Source: an uncultured Bacteriovoracaceae bacterium (GTDB lineage Bacteria; Bdellovibrionota; Bacteriovoracia; Bacteriovoracales; Bacteriovoracaceae). From it: a DNA stretch of 64,000 nucleotides. Under the pieces are notes generated by a model. The model worked only from the letters and a program-made list of their open reading frames with translations. It made no database searches and was not told the DNA's origin. The DNA lies in NCBI GenBank assembly GCA_937931205.1, contig CALHBF010000019.1, forward strand, positions 1 through 64,000. Reading direction: 5' to 3'. A program made the translations under genes and the position numbers. Each line of letters starts with the position of its first letter. Position 1 is the stretch's first letter. Shown one piece after another: positions 14,227 to 21,026 of this stretch.

Positions 14227-16191
14227 ATGCATGAACAGTTAAGTGGATCTAAGATTAAGCGTAGAATTAGCGTCATAAGGGCGATGATCGTCTCGTTTTT
14301 TGTACTTACTGTTATCTTGATCGGACTATCCATCGCCATATTTAAGACAATCAGAACGTTTGTCTATGGCGAATCTGTGTGGACTCGATCTCAAATTCTT
14401 GCAAGCTACTCACTCACTCAATATCTTTCTACCCATAATGAAGAACATTTTCAGAACTTCCTTTCTCACTTAAAAATCATCGAAGCTGACGAAGCTGGAC
14501 TCATTGAAATCCTTGATCGAGATACCGTAACTACAAAAGCGATAGACTATATTGAAGCTGGTTTGAATGATCGCAGGGACCTCGAGGTCTCTTTGAGAGT
14601 TTTTAGCTTTCTCATTCAATTTCCTATCACTCAAGATATGATCCACGAATGGCAAATAGGAAATAGTCTAACAAAAGAACTGAAAGTTTTAGGAATTAAA
14701 ATTCATCAGGATTATTCTAAGAATGTGAAATACTCTCAGGAGCAGATTGATGGCATTCTAGAAGAAATTCACAACAACAATGCGCGACTTAACAAACATG
14801 AATTGTTGTTCTCTCAACCTCTCGTTGATTTGGCCAGAGAAGTAGAAAATCTTTTAGGCCTTCTTCACCTTTTCCTTTTCTTATTTGTCAGTATGCTTGG
14901 AATCTATATTTATTTTTCAACTGCACAGATTTTCCAAAGAAGTCTTCAAACAATCAAAAACTCTATTCTTGATGCCGTTTCCGGAAATATCAAACAACAA
15001 ATTGTTATTCCAGTAGAAGAAGATATCTTTGATATCTCCTCACATCTCAATTGGATGTATGCTTCTTTTGAAAAACAGCTTCAAGGAAGATTAAGTGCCG
15101 AAGAAAGTGAAGCGAAACTGGCCATTCTTGCGGATGCGATGCCTCAGATTGTTTGTATTTATGACAGTAAATATCAGGTTGAGTTTTTAAACAAGAATGG
15201 TCGTGAATACTTAGGAATTTCGGCTGAAAACATTAAACACATCGATCTCATTCAGTTTTGTCATCATGAAGAGAAAGAGCGAGCCTTAAATCAGAGGACC
15301 CAGGGAACAATCACAAAAACCCCTGGTGAAATTGAAGTTCGTCTTAGAAACACCCATAATATTTATCAATGGTTCCTTTGTCGTTTCGAACCAGTGCTCA
15401 ATGAGAACGATGAGATTATCCGCTGGTATTCATCTTTCACAAACATTCAAGGCCAGAAGGCCCATGCTTTAGAACTTGAAAAATCTGTCGCTATTCGAGA
15501 TCAGTTTCTCTCCATTGCTTCTCACGAATTAAGAACGCCTCTAACAGCATTGAAACTACAAATCGGAATGAGGCAGAGACTCATTGATAAAAAAGCTATC
15601 GAGCATGTTGATCTGAATTATTTTCAGAAAAACATTGTTGATGACAACAAACAAATTGATCGCATTATACGTCTCGTGGATGACATGCTCGATATTTCAA
15701 GAATCAAATCGGGTAAGCTTTCACTCGATTTTACAGAAGTTGAAGTAAATCGCTTTATGAATGAGGTACTACAACGATTTCAGCCTGAATTTAATGAAAA
15801 AAAATGTCAGCTTATTTTTGAATCGATACCAGAAACAATCTGCTTATGGGACAGTCATCGTATTGAACAAGTTATGATCAATCTCTTATCAAACGCTTTA
15901 AAATACGGACGTAACAAAGATGTTTTTGTGAAGCTTGAGAAAAACTTGGACCACATTGCTATCAAGGTCATTGATCAGGGTGAGGGTATTGATTCCATAA
16001 ACAAAGAAAAAATTTTCGAACTTTTTGAAAGGGCCAATAAGGATCAGGCCGTCAGCGGCTTAGGGCTCGGTCTCTACATCGTCAGACAAATTGTACAATC
16101 TCATCAAGGTAAAATTGAAGTTTTCAGTGAGTTTGAGAAAGGCTCAACCTTTGTTATCACTTTGCCAATTAGAGTAGAGACCGAAGCTTAA
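14227..16191 (+). CDS. PAS-domain sensor histidine kinase
   Basis: Two TM regions, PAS, SHELRTPLTALK, NLLSNALKYG, GLGLGLYIV. Confidence 0.95.
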   Translation: MHEQLSGSKIKRRISVIRAMIVSFFVLTVILIGLSIAIFKTIRTFVYGESVWTRSQILASYSLTQYLSTHNEEHFQNFLSHLKIIEADEAGLIEILDRDTVTTKAIDYIEAGLNDRRDLEVSLRVFSFLIQFPITQDMIHEWQIGNSLTKELKVLGIKIHQDYSKNVKYSQEQIDGILEEIHNNNARLNKHELLFSQPLVDLAREVENLLGLLHLFLFLFVSMLGIYIYFSTAQIFQRSLQTIKNSILDAVSGNIKQQIVIPVEEDIFDISSHLNWMYASFEKQLQGRLSAEESEAKLAILADAMPQIVCIYDSKYQVEFLNKNGREYLGISAENIKHIDLIQFCHHEEKERALNQRTQGTITKTPGEIEVRLRNTHNIYQWFLCRFEPVLNENDEIIRWYSSFTNIQGQKAHALELEKSVAIRDQFLSIASHELRTPLTALKLQIGMRQRLIDKKAIEHVDLNYFQKNIVDDNKQIDRIIRLVDDMLDISRIKSGKLSLDFTEVEVNRFMNEVLQRFQPEFNEKKCQLIFESIPETICLWDSHRIEQVMINLLSNALKYGRNKDVFVKLEKNLDHIAIKVIDQGEGIDSINKEKIFELFERANKDQAVSGLGLGLYIVRQIVQSHQGKIEVFSEFEKGSTFVITLPIRVETEA

Positions 16192-16195
16192 AAAA

Positions 16196-16525
16196 TTAGC
16201 TCGTAACTTTTAATCCAATAATTGAAACCAGCAGAAGAACTAAAAAGAAAATTCTTGGTAATGTTGCCGGTTCGTGGAAAAGAACAATACCTAAAATCGC
16301 TGCACCTAATGCACCAATCCCCACCCAAACGCCATAGGCCGTTCCAATAGGAAGTACATTACTAGCGCGAGCAAGAAGATACATACTTGCTGCCAGTGTG
16401 ACTAAGGTAAATATACTAGGAACTAATTTGGTGAAACCTTCGGTGTACTTAAGACCGATGGCCCAGCAGATCTCTAGAAGACCTGCGAACCCTAAGATTA
16501 CCCATGACCAAAACTGTGTAGACAT
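16196..16525 (-). CDS. sugE: SMR-family transporter, SugE/Gdx-like guanidinium exporter
   Basis: 109 aa, four TM, GLLEICWAIGLKYTEGFTKLVPS, GTAYGVWVGIGALGAAILG; preceded by guanidine-III riboswitch. Confidence 0.9.
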   Translation of the reverse strand: MSTQFWSWVILGFAGLLEICWAIGLKYTEGFTKLVPSIFTLVTLAASMYLLARASNVLPIGTAYGVWVGIGALGAAILGIVLFHEPATLPRIFFLVLLLVSIIGLKVTS

Positions 16526-16543
16526 AACAACTCCTTTATTAAA

Positions 16544-16588
16544 GAGCCGTCTTTACCAAGCCTGGTACGGTTCACCTCGTCAGGGGCG
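16544..16588 (-). ncRNA. Guanidine-III (ykkC-III) riboswitch
   Basis: Reverse strand CCCCTGACGAGGTGAACCGTACCAGGCTTGGTAAAGACGGCTC: core GACGAGGUG..CCGUACC.GG..AAGACGG, CCUG/CAGG P1 and pseudoknot pairing, just upstream of sugE SD. Confidence 0.9.
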
Positions 16589-16609
16589 TAATTGCCACTG
16601 ATAGAATTA

Positions 16610-17479
16610 TCAATTTTTGTGCAAACCTGCAAATCCTTCGATTTCAATTTTTGTCATTGTCAGTAACTTAGAAAAAACCTCGTCTTTTAAAGGACTTCTC
16701 ATTAGTTTAGAAAGTTCGATGGGGACGACTTGCCATGAAAGACCGAATTTATCTTTTAGCCATCCACACTCTTCTACCATCCCTCCGCCCTCAAGGAGTT
16801 TATCCCAGTAATAATCTATCTCTTTCTGATCCTCACAGTTAATGACAAGAGAGCTTGAATTGTTAAAGGTATGGGGATGATCTCCCGGACCTTCCATTAA
16901 AATAAACTTTTGTCCCTCAAGATAAAACTCTGCATATTGTACAGCACCTGTCTTTTCATCTTTGCCAATCATTCCGATTTCCGCATGAGGAAAAACGGTA
17001 TTATAAAAATGAATCGCTTCTTCTCCACGACCAAAAAGCTTATTCACAAACAAGAAACTTGGTGCAATCTTTTGATCACTAGGGGCCTGAATCAGCTGCC
17101 ATTCAATGCCGAATTTATCAACTGTCCAGCCATACAAGGATGCCCAAGGATATGAAGCAAGCTCCATTCTTATTTCCCCTCCGGAGGAAAGCTTGTTCCA
17201 CTTACTCTTGATCTCATCTTTACTGGAGCAAAAAACCATAAATGAGAAGGAGGGATTGGATTTAAAAACCGGGCCAGCATTAAGAATCTGCAAGTTTAGA
17301 TTTTCGATTTTAAGATCAATTGCAAGGATTGAGTTTTCTTTTTTTCCCGAAACTTTTTCGGCCGTTTTGGGATAAAAGGAATATTCTCCGATAGAAACAT
17401 TTTCAAATATCTTTTTATAAAACAAGGACATTTCTTCAGCTTCTTTATCAACCCAAAGACATATCCAAATTTTATTCAT
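16610..17479 (-). CDS. VOC-superfamily (PhnB-like) protein, two-domain
   Basis: Duplicated PhnB-like repeats (FYKKIFENVSIGEYS..., FYNTVFPHAEIGMIGKDEKTGAVQYAEFYLEGQKFILMEGPG). Confidence 0.85.
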   Translation of the reverse strand: MNKIWICLWVDKEAEEMSLFYKKIFENVSIGEYSFYPKTAEKVSGKKENSILAIDLKIENLNLQILNAGPVFKSNPSFSFMVFCSSKDEIKSKWNKLSSGGEIRMELASYPWASLYGWTVDKFGIEWQLIQAPSDQKIAPSFLFVNKLFGRGEEAIHFYNTVFPHAEIGMIGKDEKTGAVQYAEFYLEGQKFILMEGPGDHPHTFNNSSSLVINCEDQKEIDYYWDKLLEGGGMVEECGWLKDKFGLSWQVVPIELSKLMRSPLKDEVFSKLLTMTKIEIEGFAGLHKN

Positions 17480-18890: not shown

Positions 18891-21026
18891 GTGAAATTTG
18901 AGAAAATAGAAGCTCGTATCAAATCTTTACCGCCACTTCTCATTCTGAGTCTATTCCTCTTCATTACTTTTATCTCAACTATTATTACCCAGCGAGTAAT
19001 CTCAACCCGACATCAAGAAAGATTAAATCAGCTCTCTCAGCGAATTTCTAATTCAATCATTTCCAGAGTTGAAAGATATGAAAGATCTTTAATTCATATT
19101 CATGCTTATTTTAAAACGAATCCAAATATTACACGAGAAATGTTTCGCATCTATGTCGAAGACATAGACTTAGATAAAAACTATCCAGGACTTCAGGGAT
19201 TAGGGTACACAAAAAGAATTTTAGACAAGGATTTAAAGGTTTATGAGAAATCTGTAAGATCAGAGGGTTTTAAGGATTTTAAAGTTTGGCCTGAGCATAA
19301 AAGAGAAAACTATTTTTCAATTCATTTTCTAGAACCTTTTGAATGGAGAAATCAGCGAGCTTTTGGGTTTGATATGTACACCCAACCTCTGAGACAGGAG
19401 GCCATGGGACAGGCAATGGACACCGGCAAAGCGGCCATAACAGGCATGGTAACGCTTGTTCAAGAGACTGGAAAAAAACCTCAGCCTGGTTTTTTAATTT
19501 ATCTCCCGCTTTACGAGTCTGCACTTATACCTGAAACCACCGAGGAAAGAAGAGAGAAACTATGTGGATTCATCTATGCCCCTTTTCGATCTTATGATTT
19601 TTTTAGCAGCGTCTTTGAAGAGGAAATAGGCACTCACAAGGATGTTAACGTCAAAATTTATGACGGAAATAACATTGATGATGAAAACCTTCTTTATAAC
19701 AATGACCGTTTGTTTAAGAACAAAGTTAAACCTCAATCTAAAATTTTTAATGTTAATCGATTAATGCCCAACGGACACCTTTGGACAGTTATTACGACTT
19801 ATCGTTCTGATACTGCCTTAAAACAAGAACAATTCTTACCTTGGGCCGTTTTAATACTAGGGACTATTTTTAGTTTGCTGCTTTCATGGATTTTTTATGC
19901 TTCTAAAAAGCATGCTGCGGCCATGGAGAACTCTCTCACAAGATTTAATGCTCTTGTTTCTAATTTAACAGAGGGACTCATTTTTGCTGACCCCGATGGA
20001 AATATTCTTTTTATGAATCAGGTTGCTTTAAACATATACCGCTTTCATACATTAGAGGAGATTATTTCCGACCGAAAGAAGTATAAAGAAATTTACTCTT
20101 ACCGAAATTCTAAGGATGAGGAACTTTCATTTGATGATCTCCCTATCGGACGATGCCTCAGAGGGGAAAAGTACTCCGACTTTGAAATTGAACTTTATCA
20201 TTTCGCCACTCATACAAGACAATTTATCAGCTATGGGGGAACTCCTATTTACGATAGAAAGGGGAAATTAGTTCTTGTTGTTATTACGGCCAAAGATATT
20301 ACGAGCAAAAAAAATACAGAGCTAGAATTAAGACATGCTATTATTGCAAGAGATGAGTTTGTTTCTATTTCTTCGCATGAATTAAAAACACCACTCACAT
20401 CTCTTAAACTTAAAACTCAATTTCTTCGCAGGAAACTAGATAAGAATAATAATATGCCACACGAAGAAATTAAAAAGTTTGCTGAAGGCATTGATCATCA
20501 ACTGACACGCCTAACAAGACTTGTTGACGATATGCTGGACATCTCACGCCTCAGATCTGGGAAATTCAACTTAGCAAAAGAAAAAGTTAACTTTTGTGAA
20601 ATTGTACATAATGCTGTCGAACAGATTAAACCTCAATTCATTGAAGCTGGATATGAAGCGCCAACACTTATTAATTTGAAAGAAGTTTATGGAAACTGGG
20701 ATGCTTTAAGAATAGAGCAAGTTATTAACAATCTGCTGACCAATGCCATTCGTTATGGGGAGGGAAACCCTGTAACGTTAGAAGTAAAACTTGATGGTGA
20801 TTTTGTCGAGCTTGCGGTTAAAGATCAGGGTGCGGGTATTTCGGAAGAACAAAAGAAAAGAATTTTTAACCGATTTGAGAGATTAACTGAAGTCCACGAG
20901 ACAACGGGCCTGGGTCTTGGATTGTTTTTATCTCAAAGAATTATTGATGCCCATGAAGGAAAAATATGGGTTGAAAGTGAAGTAGGAAAGGGCTCTACGT
21001 TTTATTTTTCTTTGCCTTTAAAATAA
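18891..21026 (+). CDS. CHASE-PAS sensor histidine kinase
   Basis: CHASE-like region (DLDKNYPGLQGLGYTKRI), PAS, SSHELKTPLTSLK, GLGLGLFLSQRII. Confidence 0.95.
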   Translation: MKFEKIEARIKSLPPLLILSLFLFITFISTIITQRVISTRHQERLNQLSQRISNSIISRVERYERSLIHIHAYFKTNPNITREMFRIYVEDIDLDKNYPGLQGLGYTKRILDKDLKVYEKSVRSEGFKDFKVWPEHKRENYFSIHFLEPFEWRNQRAFGFDMYTQPLRQEAMGQAMDTGKAAITGMVTLVQETGKKPQPGFLIYLPLYESALIPETTEERREKLCGFIYAPFRSYDFFSSVFEEEIGTHKDVNVKIYDGNNIDDENLLYNNDRLFKNKVKPQSKIFNVNRLMPNGHLWTVITTYRSDTALKQEQFLPWAVLILGTIFSLLLSWIFYASKKHAAAMENSLTRFNALVSNLTEGLIFADPDGNILFMNQVALNIYRFHTLEEIISDRKKYKEIYSYRNSKDEELSFDDLPIGRCLRGEKYSDFEIELYHFATHTRQFISYGGTPIYDRKGKLVLVVITAKDITSKKNTELELRHAIIARDEFVSISSHELKTPLTSLKLKTQFLRRKLDKNNNMPHEEIKKFAEGIDHQLTRLTRLVDDMLDISRLRSGKFNLAKEKVNFCEIVHNAVEQIKPQFIEAGYEAPTLINLKEVYGNWDALRIEQVINNLLTNAIRYGEGNPVTLEVKLDGDFVELAVKDQGAGISEEQKKRIFNRFERLTEVHETTGLGLGLFLSQRIIDAHEGKIWVESEVGKGSTFYFSLPLK

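What the first reader, a model, noticed from the sequence alone, without database searches (positions are those of the whole stretch)
16527..16590. Guanidine-III (ykkC-III) riboswitch controlling a sugE/gdx-like SMR exporter
The reverse strand reads CCCCUGACGAGGUGAACCGUACCAGGCUUGGUAAAGACGGCUCUUUAAUAAAGGAGUUGUUAUG. It carries the class core (GACGAGGUG, CCGUACC, AAGACGG), a CCUG/CAGG P1 helix and GAACCGU/ACGGCUC pseudoknot pairing with one mismatch. The 3' end (CUCUUU) can also pair with the SD (AAAGGAG), which suggests a translational ON switch where the ligand-stabilised pseudoknot frees the SD. Guanidine-III is a rarer riboswitch class, and the downstream SMR protein is then best read as a guanidinium exporter rather than a general drug pump.
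Basis: partly seen in the sequence, partly recalled or inferred. Interest (0 to 1): 0.75.

Follow-up and report, generated by a model that had tools for sequence, protein, structure and literature searches.

The report
Guanidine-III riboswitch before a guanidinium exporter
A short RNA switch of a known kind (guanidine-III) sits just before a gene for a guanidinium pump in a Bdellovibrionota bacterium and probably turns pump production on when guanidinium builds up; it is an ordinary, well-supported new member with some lineage-specific sequence changes.

Summary
The finding is correct. Rfam's Guanidine-III model matches window 16601-16541 (minus strand) at 38.3 bits (cut-off 36; E 2.2e-6 for the whole genome), 15 nt before the ATG of a 109-aa SMR protein (16525-16196). 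The aptamer aligns without gaps to the crystallised 41-nt T. fusca aptamer and every ligand-contacting nucleotide is kept. The SMR protein is Gdx-type: Gdx-Clo 5.8e-34 against EmrE about 1e-12, with E13, W16, S42, Y59, W62. The only paralogue found in this genome lacks W16 and a riboswitch. This recurs across the phylum and is absent from riboswitch-less sugE genes, supporting a translational ON switch, untested experimentally. The window belongs to a Bdellovibrionota sequence variant (18 loci, 16 genomes) with a conserved mismatch in P2; about half fall below Rfam's cut-off. In two genomes a copy precedes a LysE/ArgO-type exporter. ykkC-III in delta-Proteobacteria was reported in 2010, so this is a new member of a known kind.

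The parts
16541..16601 (-). Guanidine-III riboswitch aptamer (Rfam RF01763 match, model 1-67)
   Evidence: 38.3 bits, gathering 36; single copy in genome
16585..16596 (-). P0: short 5' hairpin GGC-AAUUAC-GCC directly before P1
   Evidence: Folds alone at -3.6 kcal/mol; similar hairpins precede most relatives with other sequences
16581..16584 (-). P1 5' strand CCUG (aptamer nt 1-4)
   Evidence: Covaries with nt 21-24 across 27 aptamers: CG/UA/UG/AU, CG/AU, UA/GC
16574..16580 (-). Third strand A5-U11 (ACGAGGU); C6 = 16579 and G7 = 16578 contact guanidinium
   Evidence: A5 C6 G7 A8 invariant in 27 aptamers; contacts from the T. fusca crystal structure (PMC5696562)
16567..16573 (-). P2 5' strand GAACCGU (nt 12-18); G17 = 16568 contacts guanidinium
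   Evidence: A13-U40 / C13-G40 covariation; A14.C39 mismatch shared by most of the variant group
16561..16564 (-). P1 3' strand CAGG (nt 21-24)
16544..16550 (-). P2 3' strand ACGGCUC (nt 35-41), shared by the ON pseudoknot and the OFF hairpin
   Evidence: P2 pairs counted; pairs with SD region
16526..16551 (-). Expression platform: 11-bp SD-sequestering hairpin GACGGCUCUUU-AAUA-AAGGAGUUGUU
   Evidence: Part of the minimum-energy fold; z -4.25 against shuffles
16531..16537 (-). Shine-Dalgarno AAAGGAG of sugE/gdx
   Evidence: 5 nt before the ATG at 16525
16196..16525 (-). sugE/gdx: Gdx-type SMR guanidinium exporter, 109 aa
   Evidence: NCBIfam NF008512 126.4 bits (cut-off 126); Gdx-Clo chain 6wk5 5.8e-34; G10 E13 W16 S42 Y59 W62
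16606..16633 (-). Weak promoter-like site TTTGCA-16-GATAAT overlapping the end of the upstream VOC gene (tentative)
   Evidence: 9 of 12 matches, no more sites than shuffles give; not enriched across relatives

Best explanation
A guanidine-III riboswitch in the leader of a Gdx-type guanidinium exporter gene, working as a translational ON switch. Without ligand, the 3' strand of P2 (nt 35-41) plus UUU folds back on the Shine-Dalgarno region as an 11-bp hairpin and blocks initiation. Guanidinium binding to G7, G17 and C6 locks the pseudoknot and its third strand; P2 then holds its 3' strand, the SD is released and the exporter is made. Shown by computation: class membership, kept ligand site, exporter subtype, two mutually exclusive pairings of one strand. 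Inferred: that guanidinium binds this RNA, that binding shifts the balance, and that the pump exports guanidinium in this organism.
For: Rfam hit above gathering score. Ungapped alignment to the T. fusca aptamer, with A5, C6, G7, A8, C16, G17, A19, C20, C21, G29 and A32-G37 invariant. P1 and P2 covariation. SMR protein with Gdx signature; the other SMR gene found in the genome is non-Gdx and has no riboswitch. OFF hairpin: z -4.25 in the window; P2 3'-strand nucleotides paired to the SD zone 5.7 of 7 in 17 variant loci against 2.7 in shuffles, and 4.9 against 2.2 in 16 canonical loci (Wilcoxon p 1.5e-5 and 3e-4). Ten sugE relatives without riboswitch show none (mean z +0.28, against -2.4 and -1.8; Mann-Whitney p below 0.001). 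In two genomes the same pairing survives a 30-40 nt insertion, once as perfect ACGGCUC/GAGCCGU.
Against: No binding or expression data. The score is only 2.3 bits above the cut-off. P2 has an A14.C39 mismatch where T. fusca has the G14-C39.U11 base triple, which may weaken binding. In T. fusca, P1 and P2 were reported formed even without ligand (PMC5696562), so P2 opening in the OFF state is not the documented picture there. Folding programs cannot weigh the pseudoknot against the hairpin. A few relatives (L007, L018, L031) show little or no SD hairpin.
Confidence: 0.88

Rival explanations
1. Guanidine-III riboswitch, but control acts mainly through mRNA stability: the ligand-folded aptamer blocks RNase E scanning, and SD masking is secondary.
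For: Reported for guanidine-III (Richards and Belasco 2021, as cited in PMC12186494). Not excluded here.
Against: The strong conserved SD hairpin would be unexplained. RNase E in this organism was not examined.
Confidence: 0.2
2. The Bdellovibrionota variant aptamer has shifted ligand, for example to methylguanidine or another guanidino compound.
For: P2 mismatch at the third triplex layer; two copies precede LysE/ArgO-type exporters. The class tolerates methyl- and aminoguanidine (PMC5696562).
Against: All direct ligand contacts and the conserved core are unchanged. Most copies precede Gdx exporters, as in the canonical group.
Confidence: 0.07
3. Chance similarity: the Rfam match is a false positive.
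For: Score only just above the cut-off; two other phylum hits at 25-27 bits look false (L039 over the end of a peroxiredoxin-like reading frame, L040).
Against: E 2.2e-6; exact position before the expected gene; 17 other variant copies with covariation, nearly all before sugE.
Confidence: 0.01
4. The RNA is transcribed only by read-through from the upstream VOC-family gene, so the riboswitch controls sugE as the distal gene of an operon (compatible with the best explanation; concerns the promoter only).
For: VOC stop codon is only 8 nt before the Rfam match and on the same strand. No significant promoter signal.
Against: The VOC gene is not found beside sugE in relatives, so the riboswitch-sugE unit travels without it.
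Confidence: 0.3

Closest known systems
Guanidine-III (ykkC-III) riboswitch, RF01763; T. fusca aptamer PDB 5NWQ
   Same: 41-nt pseudoknot with the same helix lengths, all ligand-contacting and core nucleotides, upstream of an SMR exporter gene
   Different: P1 is CCUG/CAGG; A13-U40 replaces C13-G40; A14.C39 mismatch replaces the G14-C39.U11 triple; position 31 is A instead of C; P2 3' strand is complementary to the SD region
Canonical guanidine-III of Bdellovibrionota (e.g. L002-L005, L010-L017)
   Same: Same phylum, same target gene, same kind of SD-masking hairpin
   Different: P2 GCGCCGU/ACGACGC with a C15.A38 mismatch; scores about 48-64 bits; in several the P2 strand pairs with GUGUCGU/GUGUUGG just downstream of the SD instead of GAGUUGU
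Gdx-Clo (PDB 6wk5), Gdx/SugE-type SMR
   Same: Alignable over 103 residues; E13, W16, S42, Y59, W62 kept
   Different: Diverged in sequence; transport not measured
Guanidine-I (RF00442) and Guanidine-II (RF01068)
   Same: Same ligand and target genes in other bacteria
   Different: Unrelated structures; none found in this genome

Membership tests
Guanidine-III riboswitch | Covariance-model score at or above the Rfam gathering score | tested here: met
   38.3 against 36 bits
Guanidine-III riboswitch | Conserved core ACGA...CCGUACC...AAGACGG and ligand contacts C6, G7, G17 | tested here: met
   All present in T. fusca numbering
Guanidine-III riboswitch | H-type pseudoknot: P1 4 bp, C20-G29, P2 12-18/35-41 | tested here: met
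   P1 all pairs, C20-G29 present, P2 6 of 7 pairs; covariation
Guanidine-III riboswitch | Regular triplex of three layers C16-G37.G9, C15-G38.G10, G14-C39.U11 | tested here: inconclusive
   First two layers kept; third replaced by A14.C39. Distal P2 also varies in Actinobacteria, so this layer is not strictly defining
Guanidine-III riboswitch | Upstream of a guanidine-related gene on the same strand | tested here: met
   15 nt before a Gdx-type SMR gene
Guanidine-III riboswitch | Binds guanidinium (about 60 uM in the literature) | not testable with these tools
   Needs in-line probing or ITC
Gdx-type SMR exporter | E13, S42, Y59, W62 and the Gdx-specific W16 | tested here: met
   role of each residue from PMC7695847
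Gdx-type SMR exporter | Closer to Gdx than to Qac/EmrE proteins | tested here: met
   119.8 bits to Gdx-Clo against about 50 to EmrE; NCBIfam SugE model 126.4 bits, cut-off 126
Gdx-type SMR exporter | Guanidinium/proton antiport | not testable with these tools
   Needs transport assay

The most novel reading that the evidence does not exclude
Bdellovibrionota carry a lineage-specific guanidine-III variant whose P2 3' strand (CUC at 39-41) was reshaped to be the anti-Shine-Dalgarno itself, at the cost of one triplex layer. This makes aptamer and expression platform one strand-exchange element, which in some species also controls LysE/ArgO-type exporters that may form a second route for guanidino-compound export.
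Probability: 0.3. Interest if true: 0.45.

Novelty: new member of a known kind. Interest (0 to 1): 0.3.

Why it matters
It adds well-supported guanidine-III switches in Bdellovibrionota, a phylum that includes predatory bacteria, and gives comparative evidence for how this class controls translation, a step the 2017 structure paper called less well established (PMC5696562). It also shows that Rfam's current model and cut-off miss about half of one branch, and points to a LysE/ArgO-type exporter as a possible extra member of the guanidine regulon.

Tried and rejected
First pair count used a mis-registered structure string and is discarded (corrected). A conserved -10 promoter before the aptamers was looked for: 9 of 36 loci have a 5-of-6 hexamer against 6.6 in shuffles, so not supported. 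Conserved linkage of the VOC gene with sugE: not found. A separate variant class by P1 CCUG/CAGG and the A-rich joining strand alone was dropped, because some Actinobacteria share both features. The Mycobacterium intermedium match to the variant pattern was rejected as a member, since it has P1 CCGG/CCGG and GACAAG. Low-scoring hits L039 and L040 are judged false. The SMR tree is poorly resolved; it places all riboswitch genes in the Gdx branch but does not give one origin for the variant. Swapping P2 3' strands between groups favoured the native strand in 12 of 14 variant but only 8 of 16 canonical loci, so it is not used as proof. Guanidine-I and -II were sought in the genome and not found.

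Full report
OBSERVATION. Rfam's Guanidine-III model (RF01763) matches 16601-16541, full length, 38.3 bits against a gathering score of 36. In the whole 3.08-Mb genome it is the only match, E 2.2e-6. The next feature downstream is a 109-codon ORF, 16525-16196, with Shine-Dalgarno AAAGGAG 5 nt before its ATG.

ANATOMY. In the numbering of the 41-nt T. fusca aptamer (Huang et al. 2017, PMC5696562) the window aptamer runs C1 = 16584 to C41 = 16544 without gaps. P1 is CCUG/CAGG (1-4/21-24), C20-G29 is present, and P2 is GAACCGU/ACGGCUC (12-18/35-41) with one A14.C39 mismatch. Guanidinium in the crystal contacts G7, G17 and the C6 ribose and stacks on C6; all are present (16578, 16568, 16579). A short hairpin GGC-AAUUAC-GCC precedes P1, and comparable hairpins with different sequences precede most relatives.

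COMPARISON WITHIN THE PHYLUM. Named contigs with the same variant are all Bdellovibrionota (Bdellovibrionaceae, Bacteriovoracaceae, Halobacteriovoraceae, Oligoflexia) apart from one Mycobacterium contig of a different type. Matching contig lengths tie these contigs to my genome handles: G165, G159, G030, G303, G174, G130, G005 and G124. RF01763 is found in 38 of 369 genomes of the phylum at E up to 0.01, 29 above the cut-off. The sequences fall into two groups. The canonical group has P1 CCGG/CCGG and P2 GCGCCGU/ACGACGC, or GCGACGU in one genus. A variant group, to which the window belongs, has P1 CCUG/CAGG or its covarying forms and P2 GAACCGU/ACGGCUC. A covariance model of the variant and reading upstream of sugE homologues bring the variant to 18 loci in 16 genomes. 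Of these 8 pass Rfam's cut-off, 7 were reported below it and 3 (G043, G080, G192) were not reported at all; the genome search uses strict filters, so the last number may be pessimistic. Across 27 aptamers the structure pairs in 90.7% of cells (shuffles 80.0%), and five pairs change on both sides: 1-24, 2-23, 3-22, 13-40 and 14-39, the last through a single sequence whose 14-39 alignment is uncertain. Position 14.39, the third triplex layer of the crystal structure, is mismatched in nearly all of the variant group (A.C, A.G or U.C), while canonical Bdellovibrionota instead mismatch 15.38.

TARGET GENE. The SMR protein matches Gdx-Clo at 5.8e-34 and EmrE at about 1e-12, and the NCBIfam SugE model at 126.4 bits, cut-off 126. 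It has E13, W16, S42, Y59 and W62; W16 is the residue that separates Gdx from Qac proteins (PMC7695847). All riboswitch-linked SMR proteins examined carry W16. The Qac-like SMR proteins of the same family have G there and no riboswitch, and the only paralogue found in the window's own genome has F there and no riboswitch. Riboswitch-less Gdx genes also exist in the same genus, so the switch is patchy. NCBI's label 'quaternary ammonium compound efflux' is therefore best read as guanidinium export, with the caveat that Gdx proteins also carry some hydrophobic guanidinyl cations.

MECHANISM. The ligand-free minimum-energy fold of 16606-16500 contains an 11-bp hairpin, GACGGCUCUUU-AAUA-AAGGAGUUGUU (16551-16526), which uses the entire P2 3' strand and covers the SD. 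For the stretch from nt 35 to the start codon, z is -4.25. The same alternative recurs: 5.7 of 7 P2 3'-strand nucleotides pair with the last 18 nt before the start codon in 17 variant loci (shuffles 2.7), and 4.9 of 7 in 16 canonical loci (shuffles 2.2). Ten sugE genes without riboswitch show no such structure (mean z +0.28, against -2.4 and -1.8). In two Bdellovibrio-group genomes (L034, L035) a 30-40 nt hairpin-bearing insertion separates aptamer and SD, yet the pairing survives, in L035 as perfect ACGGCUC/GAGCCGU. In a sample of Actinobacteria the effect is weak (3.4 against 2.8, p 0.07, with imperfect start-codon calls). One strand thus has two exclusive partners: the 5' strand of P2 when ligand is bound, and the SD region when it is not. 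This is the expected design of a translational ON switch and agrees with what has been proposed for the class (PMC5696562, PMC12186494). mRNA protection from RNase E, also reported for the class, is not excluded. Ligand binding itself was not tested.

NOVELTY. ykkC-III was originally described from Actinobacteria and delta-Proteobacteria (Weinberg et al. 2010, PMC2864571), and Bdellovibrio was then counted among the latter (my knowledge). No held paper combines guanidine, riboswitch and Bdellovibrio. Distal P2 also varies within Actinobacteria, and P1 CCUG/CAGG occurs there, so the variant lies inside the class. I rate it a new member of a known kind with lineage-specific features. The least expected result is outside the window: in G165 and G303 a first variant riboswitch precedes a LysE/ArgO-type exporter gene followed by an FMN_bind_2 gene, and a second precedes sugE. 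No held paper links guanidine riboswitches with ArgO or an arginine exporter.

Noticed in passing
L037:1528-3287 (G165) and L036:1587-3350 (G303): Two guanidine-III riboswitches 1.35 kb apart: the first precedes a LysE/ArgO-type exporter (below the curated ArgO and lysine-exporter cut-offs) and an FMN_bind_2 gene, the second precedes sugE. The first copy in G303 has C18 instead of U18 (CCGCACC).
   Followed up: partly
L034 and L035, around and within the leader: Bdellovibrio sp. qaytius and a relative carry hairpin-bearing insertions (for example AAAAAGGGUCUGCCGAAGGCAGAUCAAAAC) between aptamer and SD, and similar hairpins upstream; they look like a short dispersed palindromic repeat placed inside the expression platform without breaking the SD pairing.
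   Followed up: partly
L065 (G080) and L094 (G192): Aptamers with one or two extra nucleotides in the 5' part of P2 (GAGGAAGACCCGUACC, GAGGAUUGACCCGUACC) before sugE, below Rfam's detection.
   Followed up: partly
L013, L017, L019-L025, L027: One genus has GACGAUGUGCGACGUACC: U9 and A15 in the triplex strand and P2, departing from two of the crystal structure's base triples while keeping the ligand site.
   Followed up: no
window 16610-17479 (-): VOC-family protein (two 3-dmu-9_3-mt/glyoxalase-like domains) ending 8 nt before the Rfam match; possible co-transcription with sugE, not conserved in relatives.
   Followed up: partly
window 14227-16191 (+) and 18891-21026 (+): Two PAS sensor histidine kinases (the second with CHASE) flank the sugE/VOC region; the first converges on sugE, with stop codons 4 nt apart.
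   Followed up: no
G000:C13:222816-228973 and G000:C21:14086-14850: Three arginase/agmatinase-superfamily genes (PF00491) in the genome, two of them about 5 kb apart; one could be a guanidine hydrolase, not tested.
   Followed up: no
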